From NCBI RefSeq assembly GCF_003172895.1, contig NZ_QGKL01000006.1, forward strand, positions 1 through 64,000: a DNA stretch of 64,000 bases, read 5' to 3'. Position 1 is the first letter of the stretch, and the number at the start of each line of letters is the position of its first letter. The position numbers and the translations under genes are program-made. Under the pieces are notes generated by a model. That model was not told the origin of the DNA. It saw only the letters and a program-made list of their open reading frames with translations, and made no database searches. Source of the stretch: Leucothrix arctica (lineage in GTDB: Bacteria; Pseudomonadota; Gammaproteobacteria; Thiotrichales; Thiotrichaceae). Shown here piece by piece: positions 17,723-38,954 of this stretch.

Positions 17723-18130
17723 ATCGAACACAGAAACATAGCACTATGCGGCTCCATGATGTTTATCGGACAAATGAAAGAGATTTCAGTACTACTAACC
17801 AAGGCTGGAATATCGAGTTATTACCCCATAGAACAAGAACGTGATTTATCACGGGCTGAAATAGGCGAAGAAGCTTTTGCCGTTCAAAAAGGTGACTATA
17901 TTCGTGCCCACCTTATTAAGATTGAAAAGTCGGACAAGGTCTTAATCGCTAACTACACCAAAAATGGAATAGAGGGCTATGTTGGCCCCAACTCATTGAT
18001 TGAGCTTGCGTTTGGGTATGCGCTAGGTAAACCACTCTATTTGTTGAATGAGCCGGGTGAGCAGTCGTGTAAGCCTGAGATACTTGGCATGAAACCAATC
18101 ATACTGAATGGCGACCTGAAGAACCTATAA
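17723..18130 (+). CDS. Nucleoside 2-deoxyribosyltransferase-like protein, probable ATC start
   Basis: About 135 residues. GPNSLIELAFGYALGKPLYLL near the C-terminus matches the conserved glutamate region of the nucleoside 2-deoxyribosyltransferase fold. The first ATG (17756) would remove the essential IALCGSMMFIG nucleotide-binding strand that lies in frame just upstream. The upstream frame is open to a TAA at 17708 and has no ATG, GTG or TTG. An excellent TAAGGAG lies at 17708-17714, eight bases before ATC at 17723, so ATC is the best start. The enzyme would cleave or swap bases on deoxynucleosides; related domains occur in some defence systems. Confidence 0.6.
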   Translation: MEHRNIALCGSMMFIGQMKEISVLLTKAGISSYYPIEQERDLSRAEIGEEAFAVQKGDYIRAHLIKIEKSDKVLIANYTKNGIEGYVGPNSLIELAFGYALGKPLYLLNEPGEQSCKPEILGMKPIILNGDLKNL

Positions 18131-18334: not shown

Positions 18335-19067
18335 GTTTTTATCCCTTCTTCATCAGGGCACTGTTTTCACCTCACCTGTTTGATCAGCGTGAATTCAATA
18401 ACGTGTCTTAATCCCTTCTTCATCAGGGCACTGTTTTCACACATCATCAATGAGCGTATGCAACTAGCCAAGAAGTCTTAATCCCTTCTTCATCAGGGCA
18501 CTGTTTTCACGGTTTTGAAGCAGCAGAGTCAGGTCTTAATCCCTTCTTCATAAGGGCACTGTTTTCACGCCTTAGCCGCTCCTGTGTGCCTAGCTCAGTA
18601 CGTCTTAATCCCTTCTTCATCAGGGCACTGTTTTCACCTTGAAGTTGAAGACGAGCCAGTAAAGAAAGCACCAGTCTTAATCCCTTCTTCATCAGGGCAC
18701 TGTTTTCACGGTAGAATTGAAACCGTGTGTTATGTGGAAAACTTTTTGGTCTTAATCCCTTCTTCATCAGGGCACTGTTTTCACGAGATTAAAGAAGCAG
18801 GGTTTAAATATAGCGGCGGTCTTAATCCCTTCTTCATCAGGGCACTGTTTTCACTTAATGATTGTGGCGCGAGCGGTGAAAACACTATACGTCTTAATCC
18901 CTTCTTCATCAGGGCACTGTTTTCACCACGTTGATAACATGGTATTGGTTACAAATACTCTGTCTTAATCCCTTCTTCATCAGGGCACTGTTTTCACCGC
19001 GTTGGTCGGAGGAAGAAGCCGATAAATTTGGGTCTTAATCCCTTCTTCATCAGGGCACTGTTTTCAC
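18335..19067 (-). CRISPR. CRISPR array 1: 11 repeats, 10 spacers
   Basis: Repeats are 36 bp and, on the sense (minus) strand, begin GTGAAAACAGTGCCC and end GGGATTAAGAC. They start at 18335, 18405, 18475, 18533, 18602, 18674, 18749, 18819, 18891, 18962 and 19032. Spacers are 33-39 bp, except one of only 22 bp (18511-18532). The leader lies at the right, so the leftmost repeat is the oldest; its tag end has decayed (GTTTTTAT on the plus strand). The repeat at 18533 has one substitution. The inner CCCT and AGGG can pair, placing the Cas6 cut before the 8-nt tag ATTAAGAC. Confidence 0.98.
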
Positions 19068-19267
19068 TGCAAGGCACCTTTTCGACCTTTTTAAACAACC
19101 ACTTACAGAGGGGGTTGGCTAAAATTTTCAAATCAAAAAAGTTAGGTTTGGGCACTTACTCTCCCAAAAGCCAGTAAAATCACAGATCAACTTATCACCA
19201 TTCTCCCAAACTTATCATTCATTGTCACGTCGTCAAAAGCTTGTTAAACAAGCAACCACATTTATGT
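19068..19267 (-). promoter_or_regulatory. Leader of array 1
   Basis: The first 82 bp (19068-19149) match the leaders of the other four arrays (TGCAAGGCACCTTTTCGACC at the array edge, GTTAGGTTT at the far end). At 19224-19246 a diverged copy of the distal element is recognisable: GTCACG followed by AAAAGCTTGTTA. This is 157 bp from the array, close to the 160 bp in leaders 3-5. No TATAAT as strong as theirs is visible. The leader lies just downstream of the cas6 stop. Confidence 0.85.
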
Positions 19268-20236
19268 TTAAAGACTCACTTTAGGCACCACGTTTTCTGC
19301 ATGTAGAGTGAAGCGCCCTAGCCCCATTCCTGTGCCTTTTCCTGCGTGTATAAACTGACCTAAATACAGAATAGACCAAAATGCTTTCAAGTTTGCGCCA
19401 TCGAGCGTGATGCTACCCATTAGACCGCCCATTTTTACCGACGTTTTTTGACGAGATGAGTAACGCGACCAGTCATGCCAATGTAACTCACTGCGCAATA
19501 TAGTCATGGCTCTAGCCTGATCAGAAAGCTCCTTAAAGTCCAACGCTAGCTGTGTGTCTGTGTGAAACTGACGCAACATAGATAGTCGCCTCATAAGGAC
19601 ACTAAAGAGCGAATAAAAGTCTAAGTTTTTAGGGCCAACTTCGCGCTCTTTTAAACGCAGTCTTAGCGGTGTTTCTAAGCGCAAAACCACCTCACCTTGC
19701 GGACACTCGGGTATAACGGGCAACTGCTGCGGCAACGCTTGCAAACTTCCTCCCGCTTCATAAATGCATTGCCAATCATCTTGCTGCTGCCACAAGGAAG
19801 TCACAGAGAACTGCCCTTGCTTAGTACCCAAGCCTCTTTCTCCTGCCTTTTCTAAAGCGTAGAGAATGTATGGCAAGTGCTGATTGGCTTTTCCAAACAA
19901 CGTGAAATCGAGCAGCAGTTCGTCACCTTGCTTGACCTCAGTGGACTGATTGGCGTTAGGAATCAATACAAAGGGGTGTGGCGCTGCGGTGTATTTACGC
20001 ATGACTTGAGTACCCGCTGGTGGCGGTGTTTCAAAGACGTAGCTATACACACAGTTTTGATACAGCAAACAACCTTTGCACTCAGGCTTCCCCGTGACAC
20101 ATACGGCTGACCTCAAGGCGTGACCAAACAGCCCACGCCACGCTGAACCTGTGTAGGCGGGTAGTTGAATATCTTCCTTGGCTATCGCTTTGAGGCGGTA
20201 CTGAGCCATTGGCAGTTGTATTTCGTTTTCTTTCAT
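19268..20236 (-). CDS. cas6: Pre-crRNA processing endoribonuclease Cas6
   Basis: A 322-residue RAMP protein that cuts pre-crRNA within each repeat. The N-terminal SAWRGLFGHALR block, the cysteine cluster C46, C53, C56, C62 (probably zinc-binding) and the glycine-rich GKGTGMGLGRFTL near the C-terminus are typical of the Cas6 family that accompanies Cmr systems. The ATG at 20236 directly abuts the last repeat of array 2, and the only ribosome binding site, AGAAGG, lies within that repeat. An internal ATG at 20209 has no Shine-Dalgarno. The gene is therefore cotranscribed with array 2 and perhaps with the cmr operon. Confidence 0.93.
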   Translation of the reverse strand: MKENEIQLPMAQYRLKAIAKEDIQLPAYTGSAWRGLFGHALRSAVCVTGKPECKGCLLYQNCVYSYVFETPPPAGTQVMRKYTAAPHPFVLIPNANQSTEVKQGDELLLDFTLFGKANQHLPYILYALEKAGERGLGTKQGQFSVTSLWQQQDDWQCIYEAGGSLQALPQQLPVIPECPQGEVVLRLETPLRLRLKEREVGPKNLDFYSLFSVLMRRLSMLRQFHTDTQLALDFKELSDQARAMTILRSELHWHDWSRYSSRQKTSVKMGGLMGSITLDGANLKAFWSILYLGQFIHAGKGTGMGLGRFTLHAENVVPKVSL

Positions 20237-20834
20237 ATTTTATCCCTTCTTCATCAGGGCACCGTTTTCACTACATGGGCAGAGATATTGAGGCAGTTGC
20301 TAAAGTCTTAATCCCTTCTTCATCAGGGCACCGTTTTCACCGACTAAGACTTGCTGTAGTAGAGTTTAACGATGGGTCTTAATCCCTTCTTCATCAGGGC
20401 ACCGTTTTCACCATATACACTAGCCGCAAGAATCGTATCTCTTAGTCTTAATCCCTTCTTCATCAGGGCACCGTTTTCACTTACAAGGAAGGGGCTACAT
20501 TCAAGCAAAAAGCACAGTCTTAATCCCTTCTTCATCAGGGCACCGTTTTCACCTTAAGCCTAAGGCAGAGCAAACAGAGCAAGAGTAGTCTTAATCCCTT
20601 CTTCATCAGGGCACCGTTTTCACCTAAAGAGCTAGGCAACCACGGGTATTTTATAGCCGTCTTAATCCCTTCTTCATCAGGGCACCGTTTTCACATAAGA
20701 CTAAACGAGAAGCAGTGACCGCAGCAAAGTCTTAATCCCTTCTTCATCAGGGCACCGTTTTCACCTACTCAAACCTACCATCTAAAAGCTTTTTCGTAGT
20801 CTTAATCCCTTCTTCATCAGGGCACCGTTTTCAC
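20236..20834 (-). CRISPR. CRISPR array 2: 9 repeats, 8 spacers, leading into cas6
   Basis: Repeats start at 20236, 20305, 20376, 20445, 20517, 20588, 20659, 20729 and 20799; spacers are 33-36 bp. The sense-strand repeat begins GTGAAAACGGTGCCC, differing from array 1 at one base. The leader is at the right (20835). The leftmost repeat keeps its first 29 or so bases and then diverges into the cas6 start (GGGATAAAATATG). Sense transcripts run directly into cas6. Confidence 0.98.
20237..20250 (-). promoter_or_regulatory. cas6 ribosome binding site inside a CRISPR repeat
   Basis: AGAAGG (20250-20245) lies eight bases before the cas6 ATG and is part of the repeat stem-loop: AGGG pairs with CCCT upstream. 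By analogy with other Cas6 enzymes the cut should fall after GGG, between 20244 and 20243, separating the Shine-Dalgarno from the start codon. Sequestration and cleavage could both reduce cas6 translation. Pairing and cut site are inferred. Confidence 0.7.
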
Positions 20835-20916
20835 TGCAAGGCCTCTTTTCGACCTTTTTAATCAACCACTTGCAGAGGGGGCTGGTTAAAATTTTCAATT
20901 CCAAAAAGTTAGGTTT
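20835..20916 (-). promoter_or_regulatory. Short leader of array 2
   Basis: Only the 82-bp proximal part of the shared leader is present (TGCAAGGCCTCTTTTCGACC to GTTAGGTTT). The distal part with -10 and palindrome is missing, because the gene for the small membrane protein ends at 20930. Array 2 therefore probably depends on transcription arriving from the cmr operon. Confidence 0.8.
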
Positions 20917-20929
20917 CATCCCTCCTCCT

Positions 20930-21352
20930 TTAGATTTCGCTAATCTCACAAAAGGTCTCCAGTCTCGCTTTATCAAACTGCATCAAATCATCGTTAGTAC
21001 ATAAAATATTTACCTCATAAATATCTCTAGACACCTGAGCCTTTTCAAGCGAGGAAAAAAAGTCTACATGGTTAAGCCCGTCAAGCTCATATCGTTTTCC
21101 TTTTTCATTCATCGGCAGCATACCTAACAAGCCCTGCAACTCAGCCCTTGTTAAGTTCTTACGACGAATTTTGCAGGGTAACGTCGCTTTGTAACCCACC
21201 GATAAGTCCAGCAAATTAACCGCTATTAAGTCGTTGTCTTTTTTCTCACGCCATTTTAGATGTAACCAAATCAGCATCGTTATCACACCAGTAATCAGTC
21301 CGATAATGATGCCAAAGCGATCTAGCTGTTCCCAAAAAAAACCCCACGTCAT
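20930..21352 (-). CDS. Small membrane-anchored CRISPR ancillary protein
   Basis: A 140-residue protein with one N-terminal membrane helix (about residues 13-31: GIIIGLITGVITMLIWLHL) followed by a positive WREKK stop and a soluble domain of about 100 residues. I do not recognise the soluble domain; it contains RKNLTRAELQGLLGMLP and a YEVNILCTNDD strand. It overlaps csx16 by 4 bp and is the last protein gene of the cmr operon before array 2. By position it may be a membrane effector or regulator of the cyclic-oligoadenylate response, like Cam1-type proteins, but no CARF motif is evident. Confidence 0.6.
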   Translation of the reverse strand: MTWGFFWEQLDRFGIIIGLITGVITMLIWLHLKWREKKDNDLIAVNLLDLSVGYKATLPCKIRRKNLTRAELQGLLGMLPMNEKGKRYELDGLNHVDFFSSLEKAQVSRDIYEVNILCTNDDLMQFDKARLETFCEISEI

Positions 21353-21645
21353 CTATCTAGTCTCTTTGCGCTATAGTGCTCTAGTCGCGCCCCGTATTGT
21401 TTCATATCCTCAGCGGTAATCTCTTTACCACGAATCTCAGAAGGAAGGTCTAGTGAGAGGTGGTAATAATCGCCACCACGCTCGTTCACTTCTGCTACAA
21501 GGTTAATGGGTAACGTGCCTAGGACTTTGTCACCTTGTTTGACTTGCTTAGGGTCAAAGTGCGCTAGTTGCTCATCTACATGATGACCCTCGGAGGTTGC
21601 CCAATCGACAGCCCCTGGGTGACGGGAAATAAAGTATGTTGTCAT
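21349..21645 (-). CDS. csx16: Csx16 (VVA1548 family), possible ring nuclease
   Basis: A 98-residue protein beginning MTTYFISRHPGAVDWA, the signature of the Csx16/VVA1548 family linked to type III CRISPR loci. The family has been proposed to degrade cyclic oligoadenylates (ring nuclease), which would switch off the effectors encoded next to it. The gene lies 4 bp after the Card1-like gene and overlaps the membrane-protein gene by 4 bp. The family assignment is firm; the activity is from general knowledge of the family. Confidence 0.85.
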   Translation of the reverse strand: MTTYFISRHPGAVDWATSEGHHVDEQLAHFDPKQVKQGDKVLGTLPINLVAEVNERGGDYYHLSLDLPSEIRGKEITAEDMKQYGARLEHYSAKRLDR

Positions 21646-21649
21646 TTTA

Positions 21650-22789
21650 CTATGCTCGATTAATCCAGTTTTTTAGTTTTACTCTGAGTTGTTTCAACTC
21701 ACTACCGTGAATAATTTTCACACCCATTTCAGAAGCCCGCTTTTTGTCATACTCGCTTAGCGGTTGGTAACTGACCAACAACGACTCCGCTTTAAGACCG
21801 CCGACAGCTTCAACCAAGCTATCAAGTTTATAGAGCGTTTCTGCACCGCTCGTTGCAGTACCAGCCTTAAAATTCTTTGCCTTACACTCAATAATATGTA
21901 AACGGTTATCTGCTAAAAACACAACATCTAGCTCATTTTTAACCCCATCACCACGAACAATTTCAACACTAGAAGCAGTGTCCTGAATCGAAGGTAGATC
22001 TTTCTTTAGACTATTAAGCACAGATAAAACGTACTGCTCAAGCCACCCACCATTAGCAAAAAAACGCGCTTCTTCACTACTAAACTTCAACCGACCATTA
22101 ACTAAACTAACGAGATTAAGGTCACTTAGTTCTCCAAGTAATTCACGAAACCCGTGATTTCGAATTGCAGAGTCATGAACAATATCTGATGATAACGTTT
22201 TCATCGCACTACTCGCATACCAGTTCAACGTACCCAATGACCTTGCATACTGCTCAATGTTATCAATCAATGTATTAGCAAAATCACGATAGCTTGGTGG
22301 AATACTAGAAGCTCCCGTAGAAACAACCTTGCCGCCATAAGACTGAATAAAGTGCGGTATCTTCACTCGATCAGCAAGTCGATGACTAGGCTGGTGACTA
22401 GGGAACAACCAAACCAATTCATCTCGCTCTGGATGTACATAAAAAATAGGCTTTTTATCTGCACGAAATACTTCATACGCGCCAATACTCATTGGCTTGG
22501 TGCCGCCAGTTGCATTCAAAGCAATGGAGTCATCATCTAACTCAGCAATTAAATCTAAAATACGATCTTGTACGTGAGAAATATTCCACGGGTGATTAAT
22601 AGGCCATAGAGAAACTTTAACGCCAGCTGCTGACTTCAACACATCTGATAACCATTCAGCTTGCTTTTCCATGTCAGGACTCACAACTAAGACGACTGAC
22701 TCTGGGCGCGTTCCACTATCTAGAGCAGGTGTAATATTAGGCGTTGCCTGAGCAGATACTAAATATACATGCGTATTTATTTTGTTCAT
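21650..22789 (-). CDS. can2: Card1/Can2-type CARF nuclease (DUF1887)
   Basis: A 379-residue protein. Residues 1-150 form a CARF domain with ALNATGGTKPMSIGAYEVF, which binds cyclic oligoadenylate. A winged-helix-like linker follows, then a C-terminal PD-(D/E)XK nuclease with GGWLEQYV, D288 in NELDVVF, and E301 and K303 in IIECKAK. Family members are activated by cA4 and nick or degrade nucleic acids in the cytoplasm. The catalytic residues look intact. The start overlaps the end of the CARF-HEPN gene by 4 bp, indicating tight co-expression with the Cmr complex that makes the second messenger. Confidence 0.92.
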   Translation of the reverse strand: MNKINTHVYLVSAQATPNITPALDSGTRPESVVLVVSPDMEKQAEWLSDVLKSAAGVKVSLWPINHPWNISHVQDRILDLIAELDDDSIALNATGGTKPMSIGAYEVFRADKKPIFYVHPERDELVWLFPSHQPSHRLADRVKIPHFIQSYGGKVVSTGASSIPPSYRDFANTLIDNIEQYARSLGTLNWYASSAMKTLSSDIVHDSAIRNHGFRELLGELSDLNLVSLVNGRLKFSSEEARFFANGGWLEQYVLSVLNSLKKDLPSIQDTASSVEIVRGDGVKNELDVVFLADNRLHIIECKAKNFKAGTATSGAETLYKLDSLVEAVGGLKAESLLVSYQPLSEYDKKRASEMGVKIIHGSELKQLRVKLKNWINRA

Positions 22790-24051
22790 TTTAATAAGCC
22801 AATCAGCTCAGTTGGCAACTGAACTTTATTTAGCTTTATTTTTTGCTTTTGAGCTTGCTGAGTTAACAATGGTATTAATCCATCTTCAATGAAATTAAGC
22901 ATACGACTCCACTGAGCTTCCGTAATTGGGTCAAAACCATGAGCAAGTATCGAGTTATTTCGAATGCTCAATAAGTCCTTCATTCTCATTTCATTTTCTT
23001 GCCAATATTCCTGAACGTCTTCACTACACTTGATCGATGCAAGCTGCCACGAGTCAAGCAATGCTGTTTGCTTTATTCCTTTACTATTCGCGTAAATCAC
23101 CATTCCTTCTGGAATTTGCTCATCTTGTATATTGCTCGCATCAATCCCAGCTTGAGACTGTAACAACCACTGTGCTGACCATTCTAATAGTCGATAAGCT
23201 CTAGACGTAGCATCATCAAAACGTCGCTGTTCTGCTCTTCGTTGCGCATTTAGCCACAGGTCAAAGAGCAACACTGGTACTTTTTTAGGGGAGTCTGTTG
23301 TAATTAATCGAAGCTGTGTCAGGTAAGGAATCAGCTGAACACCAAACCGCTTCACATAAGACTCAATAATACTGAACGCTTCCTGATGCTCAAAACGATC
23401 CCAAGCTGCAAATGCACGACTCAAGTTTCTAACAGCAGATAAGTCAGCACGATCATCACGATAAGTCGGAGACTGCTGTGCAAGCTGCAAAATTGTATCG
23501 TCATATGCATAAACTTCCCAAGACGCTAAAGCCTGTCGCAGCTTCAAGCGGAAACGAGTTCTACCGATGCTTGCCTGAACAGCTTGCTGAGTTCCATCGC
23601 TCACTTTATTCAAATCGGCTCGCATACCAGTAACAAGCTGTAAACTTACCGACTCAAAGTCAAGCGCGGCCAAACACAGAGCAGCAGACATAGACTTAGT
23701 GCCGCCCGTATAGTCCACAAGCACCTCATCACCACGCTCAACAAAGTCACTGACTCTCTGTGAGATTTTGCTATAAGCATCATCTAAGTCATCAGAGTGC
23801 ACACATAAAACCTCAAACGAGTCGTCTATCATTTCAAGCTGACTCGGGATATTAGCCTTCGTTGGCTTTTCATCCTTAAAGTTACTTTTTAAGAAAACAC
23901 CTTTCTTCGTTATCTGCTCATAAGACCCAGATCGGCCTGTGTCTAAGTCATCCTCAGAACATACGAACAGAACAAAGTCAGGCTTAGTTGCCAAGACTGC
24001 TGTCACGATTGGCTGATACGAGCCGCCTACTGTGCAAACTAACGTTTTCAT
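22786..24051 (-). CDS. CARF-HEPN ribonuclease (TIGR02710/Csm6-like)
   Basis: A 421-residue protein. The N-terminal CARF domain carries CTVGGSYQPIV (residues 6-16) and VLVDYTGGTKSMSAAL near residue 110. The C-terminal HEPN domain has the R-X6-H motif as R364 to H371 in RNNSILAH. It should cleave RNA when cyclic oligoadenylate binds. It lies 2 bp after cmr6 and overlaps the Card1 gene. It is the second predicted effector of the system. Which ring size activates it cannot be told. Confidence 0.88.
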   Translation of the reverse strand: MKTLVCTVGGSYQPIVTAVLATKPDFVLFVCSEDDLDTGRSGSYEQITKKGVFLKSNFKDEKPTKANIPSQLEMIDDSFEVLCVHSDDLDDAYSKISQRVSDFVERGDEVLVDYTGGTKSMSAALCLAALDFESVSLQLVTGMRADLNKVSDGTQQAVQASIGRTRFRLKLRQALASWEVYAYDDTILQLAQQSPTYRDDRADLSAVRNLSRAFAAWDRFEHQEAFSIIESYVKRFGVQLIPYLTQLRLITTDSPKKVPVLLFDLWLNAQRRAEQRRFDDATSRAYRLLEWSAQWLLQSQAGIDASNIQDEQIPEGMVIYANSKGIKQTALLDSWQLASIKCSEDVQEYWQENEMRMKDLLSIRNNSILAHGFDPITEAQWSRMLNFIEDGLIPLLTQQAQKQKIKLNKVQLPTELIGLLK

Positions 24052-24053
24052 CG

Positions 24054-25166
24054 TTAACCGACCCGCCCTGTTTGGTTCTTCAATTTCTTAAACGCTTTTT
24101 CGGGTGCTGAATTCTTCGGTGCGTTTGCCCATGCCTCGATTTTAGATCTCTTCACATCAAACAACGCATCCAACATAGTCTCCCAGCTATCACCTGCTGA
24201 CTTCAGCGTCTTATTAAAATCTTTACCAAACATCTGAGCTAATGTCTTCTCTTCCATGTCAGAGAACATCTCTCGGTAACGTGCATCTTCAGGCAACTCC
24301 GCCAACGCAGCTTGTTTTTGCGCCTTCTCAATGTTTCGGTTGGCTTTTTCATCCGCTTCCATACGGCCATAACCAGCGGCTGTTTTTGAGCCCGCACCAA
24401 GCTGCTCTAAAGCATAAGACAACACTTCCATTACTTGCTTGATGTCGTCTTTTGCATCTTCGGTTCTAGCACCCACAGAAAACAGAAACTTTGCTTTCTT
24501 AACCACTAAAAATGGTACGGGTACAGGGTCGTGCCAATCAGCAGGAATTGCAGTACTATCCTTTGAAACATCACTAATTTGGCTCCCTTTCGAGTACCAC
24601 TCTTTCATGTGTGGCGTCATAATGTCACAGCCTAAGCTGACAGGCTCAAACGGCACCGCATCAAAGAAGATAATACTGCCAGCACGGTTGTCTTTAAGCT
24701 GCTCCTTAGGTTCTTTGGATTCGCTTCCAAACCACCTTAGCGATGCAGCACGTAACTCATCACCTTCCAAACCAGACCAACTTTCAATCCATTCACGTAC
24801 CAAGCCTTTAACTGATGCACCACTCAGATAAGGTGTTCCAAGTGTTGGGTGCCAGCTAAAGCCGTTCTCAATGGGATGTGAATTTCCCATACCTGTCACA
24901 AAATTCCATGTCGTCTCAAAAATACGAGACTGTCCGCCAAGTTGTTGTGCAAGCTGTTGTTGAGACTCAGCAAAAACTTGAAGCTGTTCACTATCTCCAG
25001 CATTACCACTGACAGAGTCTATCCAGTTACTTTTATCTTCGTCAGCCAACTCCCAATATTGGTCATACTTATCAAAAAAGCGTTCAAACCATAACCCTTT
25101 ATGGGCACCTAGTTTTTTTCTGCGAGAAGCTCGAAGCCGAGTCTCATCATATAAAGGCGCTGTCAT
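24054..25166 (-). CDS. cmr6: Cmr6, type III-B backbone RAMP protein
   Basis: A 370-residue RAMP subunit that caps the 3' side of the Cmr backbone on the crRNA. Hallmarks are HPTLGTPYLSGASVKGLVR (about residues 105-123), HMKEWYSKG and the glycine-rich GAGSKTAAGYGRM near residue 257. The C-terminal extension after residue 270 is Lys/Glu/Ala-rich and probably helical. It overlaps cmr5 by 4 bp. Confidence 0.93.
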   Translation of the reverse strand: MTAPLYDETRLRASRRKKLGAHKGLWFERFFDKYDQYWELADEDKSNWIDSVSGNAGDSEQLQVFAESQQQLAQQLGGQSRIFETTWNFVTGMGNSHPIENGFSWHPTLGTPYLSGASVKGLVREWIESWSGLEGDELRAASLRWFGSESKEPKEQLKDNRAGSIIFFDAVPFEPVSLGCDIMTPHMKEWYSKGSQISDVSKDSTAIPADWHDPVPVPFLVVKKAKFLFSVGARTEDAKDDIKQVMEVLSYALEQLGAGSKTAAGYGRMEADEKANRNIEKAQKQAALAELPEDARYREMFSDMEEKTLAQMFGKDFNKTLKSAGDSWETMLDALFDVKRSKIEAWANAPKNSAPEKAFKKLKNQTGRVG

Positions 25167-25588
25167 TTCTTAGGTTCCTCCATATACGCTTTTGCAAACT
25201 TCTTCACCCAATCTAAAAGCGCCTGTGCTTCTGACTGAGCTAACATGTAAGTCTGCATATTTTCTTTAGTCAAACCATGTAATAAGCCACTATCACGAGC
25301 ATTCTCATTATCACGATGTGCTGAATAAGGTTGACCCGCATTAGTAAGCCAGTCAGATAGCAATTTATAAAGACAACCATAAGCAATTGCCTTACTGTCT
25401 TTGCCCGCTGACTTACTACGGTAAAACGCAGCCGCCTGCCCCAAACCATTCATTTGAATCATCGCAGGCAAGCCAGACGCATAACTTTTATAAGCGCTCT
25501 GAAAGCCCTTGGTATTCATGTTTGCATCACGGTCTCGCTCGACACGCTCCAGAGCAAACGCCGCTCGCTGTTGTTGTATCGTCTGCAT
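25163..25588 (-). CDS. cmr5: Cmr5, small subunit of the Cmr complex
   Basis: A 141-residue helical small subunit that lines the target-RNA side of the complex. It begins MQTIQQQRAAFALERV, typical of Cmr5. I chose the ATG at 25588, which overlaps the cmr4 stop as TAATG; an upstream start at 25624 would add residues that only exist inside cmr4. The C-terminus overlaps cmr6 by 4 bp. Confidence 0.92.
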   Translation of the reverse strand: MQTIQQQRAAFALERVERDRDANMNTKGFQSAYKSYASGLPAMIQMNGLGQAAAFYRSKSAGKDSKAIAYGCLYKLLSDWLTNAGQPYSAHRDNENARDSGLLHGLTKENMQTYMLAQSEAQALLDWVKKFAKAYMEEPKK

Positions 25589-26502
25589 TATCGGCCACCC
25601 ACAAGTTCTGTCGTTACAGCACACCAGCCCATTCCGACCGTTTCGTTACCACCAACTTGTAACCACTTATTACTCTCTCCAAATAAACCGTTCTCAACCA
25701 TATTTGCAACGGCCAAAGCATCCAACCGAGTCGGTTGTGCTTCGCCTTCTTTAGCCTTTGGAACTCGCGAGCTATTCGCCATAATCGGCGTGTATAAAAC
25801 AGTTTCTGGTGGCAGTGTTTCTTCGTACCACAAAGCGCCCTCTTTCACCGTTTTGCTGCCATCGCTATTAATAGCAATATGAGCATTAACAGGCGTTGCG
25901 TTTTGCACTAAGTAAGCAAACATATCGTCGCTCACAATGACCAACTGTTTCTCAAGCGTCTCCTCAAAACCTTCACGATTGACCAAGCTAGCTATAGCAC
26001 TAATTGTGGCGCTCAGATCCTGCTGTTCAGCTTCAAAGCGATACTCTTCCAAATAGAGATCATCATTTTCCGCAGACCAAAGCGCTTGCGACTCACCACT
26101 TACACTAATTTTAGATAGCGTCAGAGACTTACCCAACATTCCAAGGTCACGCTCATAACGACTCAAAGCCGCTGGGCATGTTACCCACTTAAACGCTGAA
26201 GTCAGCGAGCGAATAGGCAATAACAACAAACGCGCATCACCCACCGAAATAGCACCTGCGTGGGTCACTTGACTACCAGATGGAGGCCCAAAAATTGTAT
26301 CAATCAACGGCTGATCATCTTTAAAGACAGCATCAGCCTTAGCTCTCAACGCTCCTTTAACAGAAGAACCAAAAATACAAGGCCAACCATTATGACCTTC
26401 ACGCTGAATCGGTAAGTCAACAACACCCGCAGAGCTTCCTGCTCCAGCATGAATGCTCGTTTGAGCGATTAAACCAACGATTAAATTTGCTTGCTGACTC
26501 AT
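25588..26502 (-). CDS. cmr4: Cmr4, backbone subunit and target-RNA nuclease
   Basis: A 304-residue RAMP (Cas7-type) protein, present in several copies along the crRNA, which cuts target RNA every six nucleotides. The N-terminus shows SIHAGAGSSAGVVDLPIQRE with the conserved D29, matching the catalytic aspartate of Cmr4. GSSVKGALR (about 46-54) and the C-terminal LQVGGNETVGMGWC glycine loop are also typical. Catalysis is predicted to be intact. It overlaps cmr3 by 4 bp. Confidence 0.94.
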   Translation of the reverse strand: MSQQANLIVGLIAQTSIHAGAGSSAGVVDLPIQREGHNGWPCIFGSSVKGALRAKADAVFKDDQPLIDTIFGPPSGSQVTHAGAISVGDARLLLLPIRSLTSAFKWVTCPAALSRYERDLGMLGKSLTLSKISVSGESQALWSAENDDLYLEEYRFEAEQQDLSATISAIASLVNREGFEETLEKQLVIVSDDMFAYLVQNATPVNAHIAINSDGSKTVKEGALWYEETLPPETVLYTPIMANSSRVPKAKEGEAQPTRLDALAVANMVENGLFGESNKWLQVGGNETVGMGWCAVTTELVGGR

Positions 26503-27683
26503 AGTGTTGTTCCTGTAAATTCTGATTCATTCCATAGAGCGCACACGATACGTCCGCGCCCCAATTCTGTTTGATTTCCAATAGTTTGACCGTGCAACGC
26601 ATTAATCGCGGCCTGTATGTCATCACCACTATCGACGGTGCAGTAAAAACAGCTACCTGCTGGTATAAGGCTTTCAACGGCTCTTGGTTTATGCTCTGCA
26701 ACATTCCAACCACCCTCACGTTGAGACTTACCAATCACAGCGGCATGAAGTGTTAGATTTACGCCTGCGACTTCACCATTCCAATGTTTTATTTCTGAAG
26801 TCTCATTGACAACGAAGCCAGAAGGCAGCCAACTTCCTTCAGAAAAGTGTGCAGGTGTCAGTAGTACCAAAATAAGCCCTTTAGTGTTCGCAGCTACCAC
26901 TGGCGCTTCAGGCAAAGCTTGAACGCTGTCAGTCCCGACTAACTCAACCCCAGACATTCGCCCCTCAGCACCCAAACGTAAAACCCGCTTATTGAGTAAA
27001 CCATCTGGCACGCCTGAAATATCAACCTCAACCGTTAAATCATCGACAGGTCGAATGTGCTTAGATTGATAAAGCATTTTGTCCTTAACAGCCCCCGTTT
27101 GACGGTCAATAGCGATACCAAGGCGTGACTCCTGACTAAACAGCTGCTTACTTTCATACACATCACCAGCCGAAGGCTTTTCACCAGCCAATACTTTAGC
27201 TAGACCAGACTGAGTTAACCAATCAGAATCAAGAGGCGTATAACCCACTTTATTCGTTGGCATCTCTGGCAAACAAACCTTGCCAAGATGTGTTGTCACA
27301 GGCTTCCCTATCTGTAATCGCTCAAACTCCTTGCTCCCATCGTCAGTCGACTTTTGCAGAAGTAATAACGGCACTGGATATAAGCGCTGCTTCTCAGAGC
27401 CAATCGAAAACCAAATACCATCTAGTGATAAGGCTCCTAAGTCATCACCATAACCAATGATGTCTTGCACCTCTCGCGTCTCTTCTGAGCCTTTAGAAAA
27501 GGCAGCCCAGTTCACTCCTTTCGCGTCCCCAATCGCGGTGCGAATAGCTCCCATAATCGTTCTAGGCGGTGGTGGAAACACACTGGAAAGCTCAGAGCCA
27601 CCAATCGATTCAAACGGTCGCGACTCTTTAAAAAACAACGTATCAAACGCACCAAAGCGGAATGTCTTTTGATTTGTACTCAT
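26499..27683 (-). CDS. cmr3: Cmr3, Cas5-like subunit
   Basis: A 394-residue RAMP protein of the Cas5 type, which binds the 5' tag of the crRNA and contacts Cas10. It starts FRFGAFDTLFFKESRPF and has FPPPPRTIMGAIRTAIG (about 36-52) and a C-terminal ELGRGRIVCALW. These match Cmr3. It overlaps cas10 upstream and cmr4 downstream by 4 bp each. Confidence 0.93.
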   Translation of the reverse strand: MSTNQKTFRFGAFDTLFFKESRPFESIGGSELSSVFPPPPRTIMGAIRTAIGDAKGVNWAAFSKGSEETREVQDIIGYGDDLGALSLDGIWFSIGSEKQRLYPVPLLLLQKSTDDGSKEFERLQIGKPVTTHLGKVCLPEMPTNKVGYTPLDSDWLTQSGLAKVLAGEKPSAGDVYESKQLFSQESRLGIAIDRQTGAVKDKMLYQSKHIRPVDDLTVEVDISGVPDGLLNKRVLRLGAEGRMSGVELVGTDSVQALPEAPVVAANTKGLILVLLTPAHFSEGSWLPSGFVVNETSEIKHWNGEVAGVNLTLHAAVIGKSQREGGWNVAEHKPRAVESLIPAGSCFYCTVDSGDDIQAAINALHGQTIGNQTELGRGRIVCALWNESEFTGTTL

Positions 27684-29731
27684 CGCTCAATCCCCTTGTT
27701 CGCCAGAAAACGGACTAAGAGCGCGCCATCAGCACTAAACCCTTTATCCTGATCTACCTGAAAGCTCACTGCTCCTGAGTCTTTCAAGTCTCTAACAATA
27801 TATTGGCACTGCTCCATCAAAGGGCGAACCATGTCCCGAGCAGCATCCATACTGGAAACTATAGACTCACCCGAGTTGAGATACTCCATAGCCATCAATG
27901 ACACTGCTTTTTCAAACCCACCGTCATGATTAAATACACCAACCGCTTCTTGGTTATCGTTCTTAACAGTCTTGCCATCTTTATCCTTTAACGGATTCAA
28001 CACATCGAAACGCTCACGAATACGATAGAAAAATTTACTCGCAAACTTACCCAGTTCCGCTTCATCATCGCCGATGGAAGCTCTAAAACTGTCGGCCAAA
28101 TTCTCAATAATGACCTTGCCCGAGTCTTTACTATCTAACGCTTTTGACCAAGGCATCGCCCACTCAATCTGTAAACCGCCCGGCTTCCAGACTCGACAAG
28201 CAACTGCATCTCGCCCTCTTGAGCTTTTAGCCACGTTGTCCAATAAATCGTGCGCATCACTTAACACACTACCTAGCGGCATTTTGATATTCGTGTATTG
28301 AATAGCCGCGGAAATAGACGTCACTATCTGATTTTCATCATTCAAGCTTTGATTCTGCTTATCAAAGCACTGGTTATAAAACCCTCTTAACTCAGCTGCG
28401 CACGACAACGCATGTTCAAGCGGTAAAATAGCGAGTACATCATCACCACCCGCATAGATCAGAAAGCCGTTATGATCATCAACAAAGTCAGTAACACCTT
28501 TTGTAAACTCGGATAAACCAGCCGTAATACCTGGCTGCTTTTCTGGTTTACTCATTTGCTTACCTAGCTGATCACCATCCATCAGCAAGACTGCATAGAA
28601 AGGCGACACAGGCTCTATGTCCGCAGCTTTACAAAGTTTCTTAAGCTCGTGCAAAACCAAGTCTGCATCAATAAGGTCATCATTATCCCAAGCGTTTGGG
28701 TTGCTTAACACCGACTCAAAAAAGACACTACCATCCAGCGCAGCAAAGTCTTTAAGCAGACTATTTTCACCCGTCTCTTGAGTAATACTCTTTATATTAC
28801 TGTCTCTTTCGCCATACTCACCAGTGAGAGTATGAGCAACATCATGGAATGCTCGGATACGTTCATTTAACGCATCGTCGACAGCAGCCTTTTGCAATAC
28901 TTTTGTTAACCAAGGCACTGCCGCCAAATACTGCACCGATGGCACATTACTAGGTAGCTTCCAACCTTTTACAGCCCACGCGCCATCCTGAATTTCAATC
29001 GTTAAACGACTATCAAACACTCTAGAAAAACGTCGCTTGATATAAGCAAGTGCACACAACTGCTCACCTTCTCGGAGATCTGTTTTAATACCTGCTTTGC
29101 CTTGCTCTCTCAGCGTTTGCCAGAATGTTGCAGAACTCTGTTTGCTACTTGTATATTTACCCGGTGACTCAACTCCTGAAAGCTCCTGCCAACCAGACAT
29201 CAACATGCACTTTTGACCCGGCTCACTTGGTGCCATATGTGTACGGAAATTTTTCATACGATCAAGTGTGTTTGACGTTGTTTCATCCTCAATCAAAGCC
29301 CACTGAATATCCCAAAAACCTTTAACCTGACGATCCCATATTGCCTTAGTGTCAGTCGTATCTATGCTGAGCGGCTGGAAGTCATGATTCCAAACTGCAT
29401 TTGCAAGTCCTTCCCATGCGTCATTCACCGCACTTACTACAAGCTCTGGTTTAAAGTCATTAGTAACTTCTGCCTTAAAGCGATTAGGCACATTACCCTG
29501 CTTGATGTTGGAATTACCCAACTCAAGCGCTTTCATAAACTCCATATCAGGCACTGGGAACTTAATTGATTCGTTACCCGCTTGAGCTATCACTGCTTTC
29601 ATCGCAACGGAAGATAGCCACGATAAAATAAACGAGCCCGCCCAAAAGTCGCGAGTACGTCTAGCCTGTGCCACAAAGCCTTGAACAGGGCCTATTGTGA
29701 AGTGGAAGTATTCTTTGTTGTCGATACTCAT
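27680..29731 (-). CDS. cas10: Cas10/Cmr2 without HD domain, cyclic oligoadenylate synthase
   Basis: A 683-residue large subunit. It begins almost directly with the FTIGPVQGFVAQARRTRDFWAGS block and lacks the N-terminal HD nuclease domain found in many Cas10 proteins. The second palm domain carries YAGGDDVLAI with GGDD at residues 428-431, so it should make cyclic oligoadenylates when the complex binds target RNA. MDGDQLGKQM lies before it in the conserved place. Without HD it probably relies on the CARF effectors downstream rather than on its own DNase. Confidence 0.95.
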   Translation of the reverse strand: MSIDNKEYFHFTIGPVQGFVAQARRTRDFWAGSFILSWLSSVAMKAVIAQAGNESIKFPVPDMEFMKALELGNSNIKQGNVPNRFKAEVTNDFKPELVVSAVNDAWEGLANAVWNHDFQPLSIDTTDTKAIWDRQVKGFWDIQWALIEDETTSNTLDRMKNFRTHMAPSEPGQKCMLMSGWQELSGVESPGKYTSSKQSSATFWQTLREQGKAGIKTDLREGEQLCALAYIKRRFSRVFDSRLTIEIQDGAWAVKGWKLPSNVPSVQYLAAVPWLTKVLQKAAVDDALNERIRAFHDVAHTLTGEYGERDSNIKSITQETGENSLLKDFAALDGSVFFESVLSNPNAWDNDDLIDADLVLHELKKLCKAADIEPVSPFYAVLLMDGDQLGKQMSKPEKQPGITAGLSEFTKGVTDFVDDHNGFLIYAGGDDVLAILPLEHALSCAAELRGFYNQCFDKQNQSLNDENQIVTSISAAIQYTNIKMPLGSVLSDAHDLLDNVAKSSRGRDAVACRVWKPGGLQIEWAMPWSKALDSKDSGKVIIENLADSFRASIGDDEAELGKFASKFFYRIRERFDVLNPLKDKDGKTVKNDNQEAVGVFNHDGGFEKAVSLMAMEYLNSGESIVSSMDAARDMVRPLMEQCQYIVRDLKDSGAVSFQVDQDKGFSADGALLVRFLANKGIER

Positions 29732-30729
29732 ACAGCCGACCCTCTTGCAAACTCAGCAACCTTATCGATTTTGATACCACTGTACTTCTCATCAAAATGG
29801 AATTGACTACTCGGTAGATAAATCATCGCTGTAGTAAAACTTTCATTCTCAAGCTCGTGAACATGAAAAATCAAAGGGCTTGCTCTACGTTGCTTCTCAT
29901 CTCCAAACTCCTTTAAAGGTAGACCAAAGCCCGCTTTCGCAAATGACTGCCCTTTTAACGTCGACCGAAATTCTTTGTATCGACTACCCGTCTTTGTCAG
30001 CGCTTCTCTTGCTTTGCGGTTGCTATCCACAGTCCTATGAACACTATCTTTACTAAAGGCAGTGTAAGGCGACGTTGAAACTTCTGAATAATCACCCAGT
30101 AATGCTTCCACACGATCTTGATAACTCGCTTTAGTCAGCAACGTATTCTCACCATTTAACGAGATCTGTGTAACAGAACCCATACCTCTACGAGAACGCC
30201 CACCAAGACCACCAAATAAAGACCAAGCTTCCAGCGTTTTCTCTATTTCAGCAACGTCACCATCGACCATTCTTTTAGGGTTAAAGACTAACTTCAGACT
30301 AAACTCTGTGCCTTCAATAATTGCCCCTCGGTGATCATCATCACCCTCACCCAAGAGACCATAAGCCATAAAGCTTGCGCCATGCTCTGGCTTTTTTTCT
30401 GGCGGCCAGTCATAGACTTTTTGCTGAGAGGCTATGTCCTGCTGAATAGATAATAAGAACACTCCCTGCCCCCCAGTAACTTTCTCTGCATTCATTGCCG
30501 CACCAAATAACCGTGCTTCTTCAAGGTTCAATGCCTTTAAAGCTTCAGAGGCACTCATGCCTTGAAACTTTCCCCAACTTAACGCTCGCCACCAAAACCG
30601 TAAAGCACCTTTAACAGAGGGTGGGCGCACACCATCGGTTGTGTTTTGATTAGCATCACCAATAAACATCGGTGTCACAATTCGATAGGTCGCCCTAATG
30701 ATGTGAGGTTCTTTAAAATTAAGAGACAT
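29728..30729 (-). CDS. cmr1: Cmr1, type III-B RAMP subunit
   Basis: A 333-residue RAMP protein located near the 3' end of the crRNA. It has MFIGDANQ, then the strongly conserved PSVKGALRFWWRAL (residues about 37-50), and GGLGGRSRRGMGSV near residue 173. It is the first gene of the coupled operon cmr1-cas10-cmr3-cmr4-cmr5-cmr6-CARF/HEPN-can2-csx16-membrane protein, in which gene borders overlap or lie within 4 bp. A promoter region with a palindromic element precedes it. Confidence 0.94.
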   Translation of the reverse strand: MSLNFKEPHIIRATYRIVTPMFIGDANQNTTDGVRPPSVKGALRFWWRALSWGKFQGMSASEALKALNLEEARLFGAAMNAEKVTGGQGVFLLSIQQDIASQQKVYDWPPEKKPEHGASFMAYGLLGEGDDDHRGAIIEGTEFSLKLVFNPKRMVDGDVAEIEKTLEAWSLFGGLGGRSRRGMGSVTQISLNGENTLLTKASYQDRVEALLGDYSEVSTSPYTAFSKDSVHRTVDSNRKAREALTKTGSRYKEFRSTLKGQSFAKAGFGLPLKEFGDEKQRRASPLIFHVHELENESFTTAMIYLPSSQFHFDEKYSGIKIDKVAEFARGSAV

Positions 30730-30912
30730 AAACAGCCTTTTGAAAGATATGATTCAGCTTAGAGAATACGCTGAGAATAAACACACAGTCACGCCTTACA
30801 AGCTTGTAAGACAGTATCAAGAATGAAAAATCGGTAGAAATAAAACCAATAGTACCCAAGTAAAGACAAACGGTATATTAGTTAAAGTAATTACTTAGAA
30901 TAAATAACGACT
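30730..30912 (-). promoter_or_regulatory. cmr operon promoter with leader-type palindrome
   Basis: A perfect 16-bp palindrome, CTTACAAGCTTGTAAG, lies at 30795-30810, preceded on the plus strand by GTCACG (30789-30794). The same pair, in the same orientation, occurs in CRISPR leaders 3, 4 and 5. On the sense strand CGTGAC and TCAGC are also shared at nearly the same spacing, and TATTCT lies where a -10 could be. It is a probable operator for a regulator common to the cmr genes and the arrays. Confidence 0.7.
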
Positions 30913-32092: not shown

Positions 32093-33035
32093 TGTTAAAT
32101 CCCTTCTTCATCAGGGCATCGTTTTCACATACATTCTCACGCATAGCGATGGTGGAATATGCGTCTTAATCCCTTCTTCATCAGGGCATCGTTTTCACAT
32201 ATTCAGGGTTTCGTAGCGATGGCGGGTATTCGGTCTTAATCCCTTCTTCATCAGGGCATCGTTTTCACATTATATCAGCAATTATGTTAGCAGTGATTAT
32301 TAGTCTTAATCCCTTCTTCATCAGGGCATCGTTTTCACGTGCAGAGCATGGTTGTCTTAACTGGTTCTCTGCGTCTTAATCCCTTCTTCATCAGGGCATC
32401 GTTTTCACCTATCTTTAGCGACTGCTGTGATGGTAATTATGTCTTAATCCCTTCTTCATCAGGGCATCGTTTTCACCTCAAACACTAGACAACTTACCAG
32501 AAACACACAGTCTTAATCCCTTCTTCATCAGGGCATCGTTTTCACTGAATAGTTTGGATATGCCTATCGAATATATCAATGAGTCTTAATCCCTTCTTCA
32601 TCAGGGCATCGTTTTCACCGCAGAGCTAGGTAAGACTGGTCAGGACTGGGCGGTCTTAATCCCTTCTTCATCAGGGCATCGTTTTCACCTAAGGCGCTAA
32701 AGGTGTTGGACGTGCATCACCTGTCTTAATCCCTTCTTCATCAGGGCATCGTTTTCACCCAAATGGTTTGAGTGATACCGAAGTAATGACCGAAGGTCTT
32801 AATCCCTTCTTCATCAGGGCATCGTTTTCACAAACAATTGGGTGTACATGGATTTCTCAAACGGTCTTAATCCCTTCTTCATCAGGGCATCGTTTTCACA
32901 GTAAAATAAGCTGTAAACCACCGTATATACGGTCTTAATCCCTTCTTCATCAGGGCATCGTTTTCACAGTAAAATAAGCTGTAAACCACCGTATATACGG
33001 TCTTAATCCCTTCTTCATCAGGGCATCGTTTTCAC
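32093..33035 (-). CRISPR. CRISPR array 3: 14 repeats, 13 spacers
   Basis: Repeats start at 32093, 32163, 32233, 32303, 32373, 32441, 32510, 32583, 32653, 32723, 32796, 32864, 32932 and 33000; the sense repeat begins GTGAAAACGATGCCC. Spacers are 32-37 bp. The two leader-proximal spacers (32900-32931 and 32968-32999) are identical. The leftmost repeat has a decayed tag (TGTTAAAT). Sense transcripts run toward the NE0113-family gene about 60 bp away. Confidence 0.98.
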
Positions 33036-33255
33036 TGCAGGGCACCTTTTCGACCTTTTTAATCAACCACTTGCAGAGGGGGTTGGCTAAAGTTTTCAAT
33101 TTCAAAAAGTTAGGTTTTAGCATTTTCATCACTTCAACCTCATGCATAACAGCGAATTAACTCATTATACATTGTGCTGAAACAAACGCCACCTGTCACC
33201 TCCCCACAAGCTTGTAAGCCGAGTAATACGGTTTATTTTCGGTTTAAATCATCGC
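33036..33255. promoter_or_regulatory. Leader of array 3 and divergent promoter of the adaptation operon
   Basis: The 82-bp proximal leader (33036-33117) is followed by a distal part shared with leaders 4 and 5. On the minus strand a perfect TATAAT lies at 33164-33169, 129 bp from the array. GTCAC and ACAAGCTTGTAAG lie at 33195-33218, 160 bp from the array. The remaining 37 bp lead to the cas2 start on the plus strand, so one element may serve both the array and cas2-cas1. Confidence 0.85.
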
Positions 33256-36135: not shown

Positions 36136-36318
36136 TGCAGGGCACCTTTTCGACCTTTTTAATCAACCACTTGCAGAGGGGATTGGCTAAAATTTTCAAT
36201 TTCAAAAAGTTAGGTTTTAGCATTTTCATCACTCCAACCTTATGCATAACAGCGAATTAACTCATTATACATTGTGCTGAAACAAACGCCATTTGTCACG
36301 CATTCGCAAGCTTGTAAG
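36136..36318 (-). promoter_or_regulatory. Leader of array 4
   Basis: A full-length leader nearly identical to leaders 3 and 5: proximal 82 bp, TATAAT on the minus strand at 36264-36269, and GTCACG plus GCAAGCTTGTAAG at 36295-36318. It ends at the stop of the DUF4143 ATPase gene, which is read in the same direction. Confidence 0.88.
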
Positions 36319-38771: not shown

Positions 38772-38954
38772 TGCAGGGCACCTTTTCGACCTTTTTAATC
38801 AACCACTTGCAGAGGGGGTTGGCTAAAATTTTCAATTCCAAAAAGTTAGGTTTTAGCATTTTCATCACTTCAACCTTATACACAACAGCTAATTAACTCA
38901 TTATACATTGTGCTGAAACAAACGCCACTTGTCACGTATTCACAAGCTTGTAAG
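38772..38954 (-). promoter_or_regulatory. Leader of array 5
   Basis: Full-length leader with TATAAT on the minus strand at 38900-38905, 129 bp from the array, and GTCACG plus ACAAGCTTGTAAG at 38931-38954, 160 bp from the array. It marks the right edge of the CRISPR locus; 38955-39005 shows nothing else. Confidence 0.88.

What the first reader, a model, noticed from the sequence alone, without database searches (positions are those of the whole stretch)
20234..20271. cas6 is translated from a ribosome binding site inside a CRISPR repeat that Cas6 should cut
The last repeat of array 2 runs directly into the cas6 ATG. The only good Shine-Dalgarno, AGAAGG, is at 20250-20245, eight bases before the ATG. 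It lies in the 3' half of the repeat hairpin (CCCT paired with AGGG). In the other repeats the 8-nt tag ATTAAGAC implies a Cas6 cut just after GGG; here that cut falls between the Shine-Dalgarno and the start codon. Free Cas6 would thus bind or cleave its own leader and reduce its own synthesis, a feedback circuit that needs no transcription factor. The terminal repeat has kept the stem and lost only the tag bases, as expected if the stem is under selection.
Basis: partly seen in the sequence, partly recalled or inferred. Interest (0 to 1): 0.88.

Follow-up and report, generated by a model that had tools for sequence, protein, structure and literature searches.

The report
Cas6 gene starts inside CRISPR repeat
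In a marine Leucothrix bacterium the last repeat of a CRISPR array supplies the ribosome-landing site of the gene for the enzyme that cuts those repeats, so the enzyme probably disables its own message each time it cuts there; the layout is real and rare, but the feedback itself is untested.

Summary
The ninth repeat of array 2 runs into the cas6 ATG (20236). The only plausible Shine-Dalgarno, AGAAGG (20250-20245), overlaps the 3' arm of the repeat hairpin, and the expected Cas6 cut (20244/20243) falls between it and the start. All 28 bases upstream of the cut match the array's other eight repeats; folding pairs the AGGG core at 0.98-1.0.

One argument fails. "Stem kept, tag lost" is no sign of selection for this circuit: all five window arrays end that way, and four do not precede cas6.

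The best reading is RBS capture. Array 2 sits in the tail of the cmr operon; its leader lacks the promoter-bearing half, and cas6 lacks the palindromic box (CAAGCTTG-like) found upstream of cas6 in 58 of 190 surveyed loci. Of 201 Cas6 loci, one other (G045: Cas6 31% identical, different repeat and neighbours) shows the same fusion; close relatives of both lack it. Loss of intervening DNA probably left the repeat as sole RBS.

If Cas6 cuts this repeat, negative feedback follows mechanically; whether it is strong or selected is unknown. Ten literature searches listed no precedent.

The parts
19268..20236 (-). cas6, 322 aa, ATG start at 20236
   Evidence: PF10040, 58.3 bits; single match in the genome; start agrees with L. 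pacifica
20237..20271 (-). terminal repeat of array 2: 28 intact nt (20271-20244) plus altered tag ATAAAAT (20243-20237)
20245..20250 (-). Shine-Dalgarno AGAAGG, inside the repeat
   Evidence: duplex energies
20256..20259 (-). 5' arm of repeat hairpin (CCCT)
20244..20247 (-). 3' arm of repeat hairpin (AGGG); expected Cas6 cut between 20244 and 20243
   Evidence: cut site inferred from the 8-nt tag ATTAAGAC in 52 of 52 non-terminal repeats
20240..20254 (-). mini-ORF ATG AAG AAG GGA TAA inside the terminal repeat, stop 3 nt before cas6 ATG
   Evidence: no evidence of translation
20272..20834 (-). rest of array 2 (eight full repeats and their spacers), read towards cas6
20835..20924 (-). proximal part of the CRISPR leader of array 2; the distal box/TATAAT part seen in arrays 3-5 is missing
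20930..30729 (-). ten-gene block (cmr1-cmr6, CARF/HEPN protein, Card1-like, Csx16, 140-aa protein), gaps -4 to +4 nt, upstream of array 2 and cas6
   Evidence: for gaps; Cmr2, Cmr5, Card1-like, Csm6-HEPN, Csx16, Cmr3; cmr1, cmr4 and cmr6 match only the RAMP superfamily and are named by gene order
30799..30806 (.). palindromic box CAAGCTTG about 70 nt before cmr1; proposed promoter region of the operon that ends in cas6
18335..18370 (-). control: terminal repeat of array 1 (...AGAAGGGATAAAAACG), stem kept and tag lost; the next gene (17756-18130) is on the other strand

Best explanation
Array 2 lies inside the cmr-cas6 transcription unit. In an ancestor cas6 (or the short operon it belonged to) had a promoter region with a CAAGCTTG-like box and its own RBS. 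A rearrangement or deletion brought the terminal repeat of the array up to the cas6 start, and only arrangements that left an SD at a workable distance kept cas6 expressed; the repeat's 3' arm (AAGAAGGG) served. cas6 is therefore translated only from uncut transcript. Each time Cas6 matures the pre-crRNA of array 2 at its last repeat it removes the SD, and when bound it covers the SD, so Cas6 limits its own synthesis in cis. Shown here: anatomy, intact substrate, SD predicted in the stem, missing box and leader half, one recurrence elsewhere. Inferred: readthrough transcription, the cut, the loss of translation, the feedback.
For: Junction and intact 28-nt substrate. SD core paired at 0.98-1.0; no SD duplex after the cut. 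Ten upstream genes on the same strand with gaps of -4 to +4, then array 2, then cas6. No terminator-like site in 19000-21700 (shuffles give 2.5) and no promoter-like site on the minus strand between 20236 and 21020. Array 2 keeps only the proximal ~90 nt of the leader; arrays 3-5 carry a box and TATAAT further up. CAAGCTTG is the commonest of 256 8-mer palindromes in the 150 nt upstream of cas6: 40 of 190 loci, next best 3; [CA]AAGCTTG 58 of 190 against a mononucleotide-shuffle mean of 0.74, maximum 3. It is absent between cas6 and the 140-aa gene but present before cmr1. Second fusion in G045, also the tail of a row of same-strand genes starting at a box (221-aa gene, cas1, RT, array, cas6). 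Relatives lack the fusion: L. pacifica has box and csx16 between array and cas6; G060 (Cas6 62% identical to that of G045) has about 170-250 nt between, by choice of start codon; G056 (59%) has no array within the 8 kb taken.
Against: No transcript, cut or expression data. The repeat stem is only 4 bp, so binding strength is unknown. In the G045 junction the SD core is predicted paired, but the lowest-energy fold pairs it with the last spacer, not with the repeat's own 5' arm. Recurrence is 2 of 201 loci; with about a dozen arrays upstream of cas6, one extra abutting case could arise by chance at roughly 0.17 (my arithmetic, uniform spacing assumed, not a tool result). 132 of 190 loci have no box in the window searched either, so its absence before the window cas6 is not remarkable by itself. 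Terminal-repeat anatomy carries no sign of selection beyond that of other arrays. Cas6 held by other pre-crRNAs (57 repeats in five arrays) might rarely reach this one.
Confidence: 0.5

Rival explanations
1. Passive RBS capture. The array was placed before cas6 by rearrangement, the repeat happens to contain an SD, and cutting has no appreciable effect because ribosomes load before Cas6 acts or most Cas6 is occupied on other repeats.
For: The repeat class contains AAGG by itself, so a gene 6-8 nt behind it gains an SD; terminal repeats elsewhere look the same.
Against: Free Cas6 with an intact substrate in the 5' UTR must at least compete with ribosomes; pairing of the SD core is near complete even without Cas6.
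Confidence: 0.33
2. Cleavage activates. The natural cas6 mRNA is the cut form, translated as a nearly leaderless message starting 7 nt before the ATG, because the uncut hairpin hides the SD.
For: The SD is predicted sequestered; both fusions would leave 6-7 nt leaders.
Against: No SD pairing remains; short leaders are usually poor in gammaproteobacteria (recalled knowledge).
Confidence: 0.07
3. cas6 is transcribed from a promoter inside a spacer or the terminal repeat, or initiates at a later codon (M10), so the full repeat is not in the mRNA that matters.
For: None direct; the promoter scan covers only sigma-70-type consensus.
Against: No promoter-like site in the stretch; no evident SD before M10 (by eye); M1 is conserved in L. 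pacifica.
Confidence: 0.1

Closest known systems
Haloferax volcanii s479 (PMC8155600; passages read)
   Same: RNA between a CRISPR array and the cas cassette holding an almost complete repeat; its processed forms are lost in a cas6 deletion strain
   Different: A separate small RNA with its own start site acting on znu mRNA; not described as the RBS of cas6
CRISPR autoregulation by repeat-derived guides: long-form tracrRNA with Cas9 (as described in PMC8730458, passages) and CreA/CreT (PMC8501985, search listing and abstract start only)
   Same: A degenerate or duplicated repeat is turned to control of the system's own or associated genes
   Different: Guide-directed repression; here cis-cleavage of an mRNA leader by the processing enzyme would act
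DevTRS feedback of Myxococcus xanthus type I-C (as described in PMC8616872, passages)
   Same: Cas proteins reduce their own operon
   Different: Cas3 and Cas6 activity not required; mechanism unknown
Synthetic Csy4/direct-repeat 5'-UTR switches (5' DREDGE, PMC12191184; abstract and outline only)
   Same: A repeat in a 5' UTR lets a Cas RNase lower expression
   Different: Engineered for chosen target genes, not a natural autoregulatory site
RNase E and RNase III autoregulation through their own 5' UTRs (recalled, no call)
   Same: An endoribonuclease cuts its own leader and lowers its synthesis
   Different: The site is not a CRISPR repeat and is not shared with the enzyme's main product

Membership tests
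Cas6 pre-crRNA endoribonuclease | Cas6 domain (PF10040) | tested here: met
   58.3 bits, cut-off 25; the NCBIfam TIGR01877 score of 21.7 is below its 58.65 cut-off
Cas6 pre-crRNA endoribonuclease | C-terminal glycine-rich loop | tested here: met
   GKGTGMGLG at residues 299-307; GKGTSMGLG in L. pacifica; the motif itself is recalled
Cas6 pre-crRNA endoribonuclease | Cuts the repeat 8 nt from its 3' end | not testable with these tools
   Inferred from tag ATTAAGAC in 52 of 52 non-terminal repeats
Type III-B CRISPR-Cas | cmr2/cas10 with palm domain, cmr3 and cmr5 | tested here: met
   PF22335, PF12469, PF09701, PF09700
Autoregulated ribonuclease mRNA | Enzyme's own recognition site in the 5' UTR overlapping the RBS | tested here: met
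   by sequence and predicted fold:
Autoregulated ribonuclease mRNA | Cleavage in vivo | not testable with these tools
   no RNA data
Autoregulated ribonuclease mRNA | Expression falls when the enzyme is supplied | not testable with these tools
   no expression data
Autoregulated ribonuclease mRNA | Site conserved in orthologues | tested here: not met
   Closest orthologue (L. pacifica, 67%) lacks it; one distant, apparently independent case, G045

The most novel reading that the evidence does not exclude
Cas6 senses pre-crRNA load. Because its own RBS is one of its substrates, unprocessed repeats elsewhere titrate Cas6 away and release cas6 translation, while surplus Cas6 cuts it off, matching enzyme supply to array transcription without a transcription factor. 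The same circuit arose at least twice by capture of a terminal repeat.
Probability: 0.3. Interest if true: 0.78.

Novelty: new variant of a known kind. Interest (0 to 1): 0.6.

Why it matters
How Cas6 supply is matched to pre-crRNA supply is, as far as I know, poorly understood. Here the question reduces to an element of about 70 nt that can be put in front of a reporter in a laboratory strain, with a second natural element (G045) as a replicate. It would also show that a terminal CRISPR repeat can become a gene's RBS, a route by which arrays rewire neighbouring genes.

Tried and rejected
Selection on the stem, argued from the loss of the tag alone: rejected, since all five terminal repeats in the window look alike, as do those of arrays in L. 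pacifica, G045 (array A), G060 and three G028 arrays. A contrary case: the last repeat before cas6 in G1139 keeps its whole tag.

Pattern search of 369 class genomes for repeat core plus ATG: 18 places in 10 genomes; only the window's own opens a cas6 frame. The rest are mostly spacers beginning with ATG and short frames; frames of 229, 173 and 163 codons do not resemble cas6 by eye and were not scanned.

Survey limits: 201 Cas6 loci in 178 genomes were examined. 190 of them (173 genomes) have at least 200 nt upstream of the open frame and are the base of the box counts; 11 have less. Dropped beforehand from the rows: fragments, most frames of about 600-1050 aa (likely fusions), duplicates, and rows without a locus that I did not fetch (two, about a dozen). 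Arrays were found by exact 14-mers repeated at 55-90 nt, so solitary or decayed repeats can be missed; the G028 two-repeat array was found by a looser search. Box counts use mononucleotide shuffles only. Loci L139-L143 and L049 were fetched and not analysed.

Plasmids: 11 and 8 records, best identity 38% and 29%; not followed. Rfam: 0 hits. PDB sequence search: 0 hits. AlphaFold model of Cas6 with 2 sequences: mean pLDDT 54.4, not used. An HTH protein near the G045 locus as candidate reader of the box: significant matches only in G045 itself and in one other genome, dropped.

Literature: the ten searches listed no paper whose title, abstract start or passages seen describe an RBS inside a repeat or Cas6 cutting its own leader; several had more hits than were listed, and the library lacks most subscription journals.

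Full report
The window lies in G000:C41, a genome of the same genus as G029; G029:C63 has the contig length and cas6 of Leucothrix pacifica JCM 18388, so I infer Leucothrix. It carries a type III-B CRISPR locus with five arrays of one repeat class and one match to this Cas6. The finding was checked base by base. The ninth repeat of array 2 is intact for its first 28 nt, its last 8 nt are replaced by ATAAAAT, and cas6 starts at once with ATG. AGAAGG at 20250-20245 is the only sensible Shine-Dalgarno, 8 nt from the ATG. It overlaps the AGGG arm of the repeat hairpin, which is paired at 0.98-1.0 in the folded junction. A Cas6 cut at the place implied by the ATTAAGAC tag would leave a 7-nt leader without SD pairing (+1.6 against -5.3 or -7.3 kcal/mol, depending on the length of 16S tail used).

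The five window arrays (11, 9, 14, 9 and 14 repeats for arrays 1 to 5) keep the tag in every non-terminal repeat (52 of 52) and lose it in every terminal repeat (5 of 5), and all five terminal repeats keep the stem (the search pattern required the stem, and one search shows no further copy beyond, the best being 12 mismatches in 28). Arrays 1 and 4 even share GGGATAAAA with array 2. Terminal repeats of arrays in L. pacifica, G045 (array A), G060 and three arrays of G028 behave the same way. G1139 is an exception: its last repeat keeps the tag. So the state of the array 2 terminal repeat is what terminal repeats of this class usually look like.

What is unusual is what follows the repeat. I examined 201 Cas6 loci from 178 genomes (selection described under Tried and rejected). 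About a dozen have an array upstream in the same orientation within roughly 550 nt. Two abut the start codon: the window (7 nt from cut to ATG) and G045 (6 nt). The nearest other is G1139 at 86 nt, then G028 at about 96 nt; the rest are about 150 nt or further. G045 belongs to another genus of the same family. Its Cas6 is 31% identical, its repeat is GTTTGAGTGGTTACCTGATGAATAAGGTATTAAGAC, and its neighbours are cas1 and a reverse transcriptase. Its SD, TAAGG, lies in the 3' arm of the repeat hairpin (isolated repeat -5.2 kcal/mol), and AAGG is paired at 0.85-1.0 in the junction fold, but there the lowest-energy structure pairs it with the last spacer rather than with the repeat's own 5' arm. 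Its closest Cas6 relatives (G060, 62%; G056, 59%) do not abut, nor does L. pacifica, closest to the window. Two origins are therefore more likely than one. By my own arithmetic, with about a dozen arrays spread over some 400 nt, a second abutting case could be chance at about 0.17, so recurrence is suggestive, not proof.

The surroundings suggest how cas6 is expressed. Ten genes from cmr1 to the 140-aa gene lie on the same strand with gaps of -4 to +4 nt. Array 2 and cas6 follow. A consensus scan gives no promoter-like site on that strand between 20236 and 21020 and no terminator-like site in 19000-21700; such scans are weak evidence. The leaders of arrays 3, 4 and 5 align over about 170 nt, including a palindrome CAAGCTTG 172 nt before the first repeat and a TATAAT. 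Array 1 has a weaker form at 169 nt. Array 2 keeps only the proximal 90 nt. The same palindrome lies about 70 nt before cmr1. In L. pacifica it stands between the array and csx16-cas6. Across Cas6 loci it is the commonest of all 256 8-mer palindromes in the 150 nt upstream: 40 of 190, next best 3. With [CA]AAGCTTG the count is 58 of 190, against a shuffle mean of 0.74 and maximum of 3. The window cas6 and the G045 cas6 both lack it directly upstream, as do 132 of the 190. Both are tails of same-strand gene rows that begin at such a box (30799 in the window; L046 position 5629 for G045).

The most economical reading is RBS capture: loss of the DNA between array and cas6 removed promoter and RBS, and the repeat's own AAGG replaced the latter. 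Selection for continued translation would fix the 6-7 nt spacing without any need for regulation. Yet once cas6 depends on that SD, cutting at the terminal repeat and translating cas6 exclude each other on one RNA molecule. Feedback is then an expected by-product, whose strength depends on how fast Cas6 reaches the repeat compared with the ribosome. That is the step no computation here can settle.

Literature: ten searches of the open-access library listed no report of an RBS inside a CRISPR repeat or of Cas6 cutting its own leader. The nearest natural case is s479 of Haloferax volcanii, a small RNA with an almost complete repeat between an array and the cas cassette, whose processed forms are lost without cas6 (PMC8155600, passages read). 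A solitary repeat of a phage binds Cas6f and is cut by it (PMC10651486, passages read), which makes cutting of a lone or terminal repeat plausible. Engineered 5'-UTR repeats lower expression when Csy4 is supplied (PMC12191184, abstract and outline). Passages of PMC10013973 and PMC5576922 were also seen and held nothing on this point.

Verdict: a real and rare arrangement, correctly read in its anatomy, overstated in its evolutionary argument, with a plausible and directly testable mechanism.

Noticed in passing
window 30799-30806, 33207-33214, 36307-36314, 38943-38950, weaker at 19236-19243; upstream of cas6 in many loci: Palindrome of the form GRCAAGCTTGYC stands before cmr1, before cas2 (41 nt), 172 nt before the first repeats of arrays 3-5, and, mostly 50-80 nt before the start, upstream of cas6 in 58 of 190 surveyed loci. 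It looks like the operator of a shared CRISPR regulon; the regulator is unknown.
   Followed up: partly
window leaders of arrays 1-5 (e.g. 20919 downwards on the minus strand); L047, L040, L048: The leaders hold a small open frame, start codon then KPNF or similar, in frame with the first repeat (..ALMKKGLR) in all five window arrays, L. pacifica and two G028 arrays; in G018 it meets a stop at the start of the repeat; four other leaders checked (L041, two of L046, one of L040) lack it. In array 2 it has a strong SD (AAAGGAGGAGGG-ATG). Possible translated leader peptide running into the array.
   Followed up: partly
L040 14936-15476 (G028): A two-repeat array of the G045 repeat type is fused to a truncated cas6 (C-terminal part, 63% identical to the window's); the fragment's frame starts at an ATG inside the repeat.
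   Followed up: partly
window arrays 1, 2, 3 and 5: Arrays differ by repeat allele at positions 9-10 (AG in array 1, GG in array 2, GA in arrays 3 and 5), and the terminal repeats of these four carry the allele of their array.
   Followed up: no
window 32861-32996: Array 3 contains an exact tandem duplication of one 68-nt repeat-spacer unit.
   Followed up: no
window 20930-21352: 140-aa protein with no Pfam or NCBIfam hit between csx16 and array 2, hydrophobic near its N-terminus by eye; a similar 140-aa frame sits before the array in L. pacifica (L047 13703-14125). Possibly a membrane-anchored accessory protein of type III.
   Followed up: no
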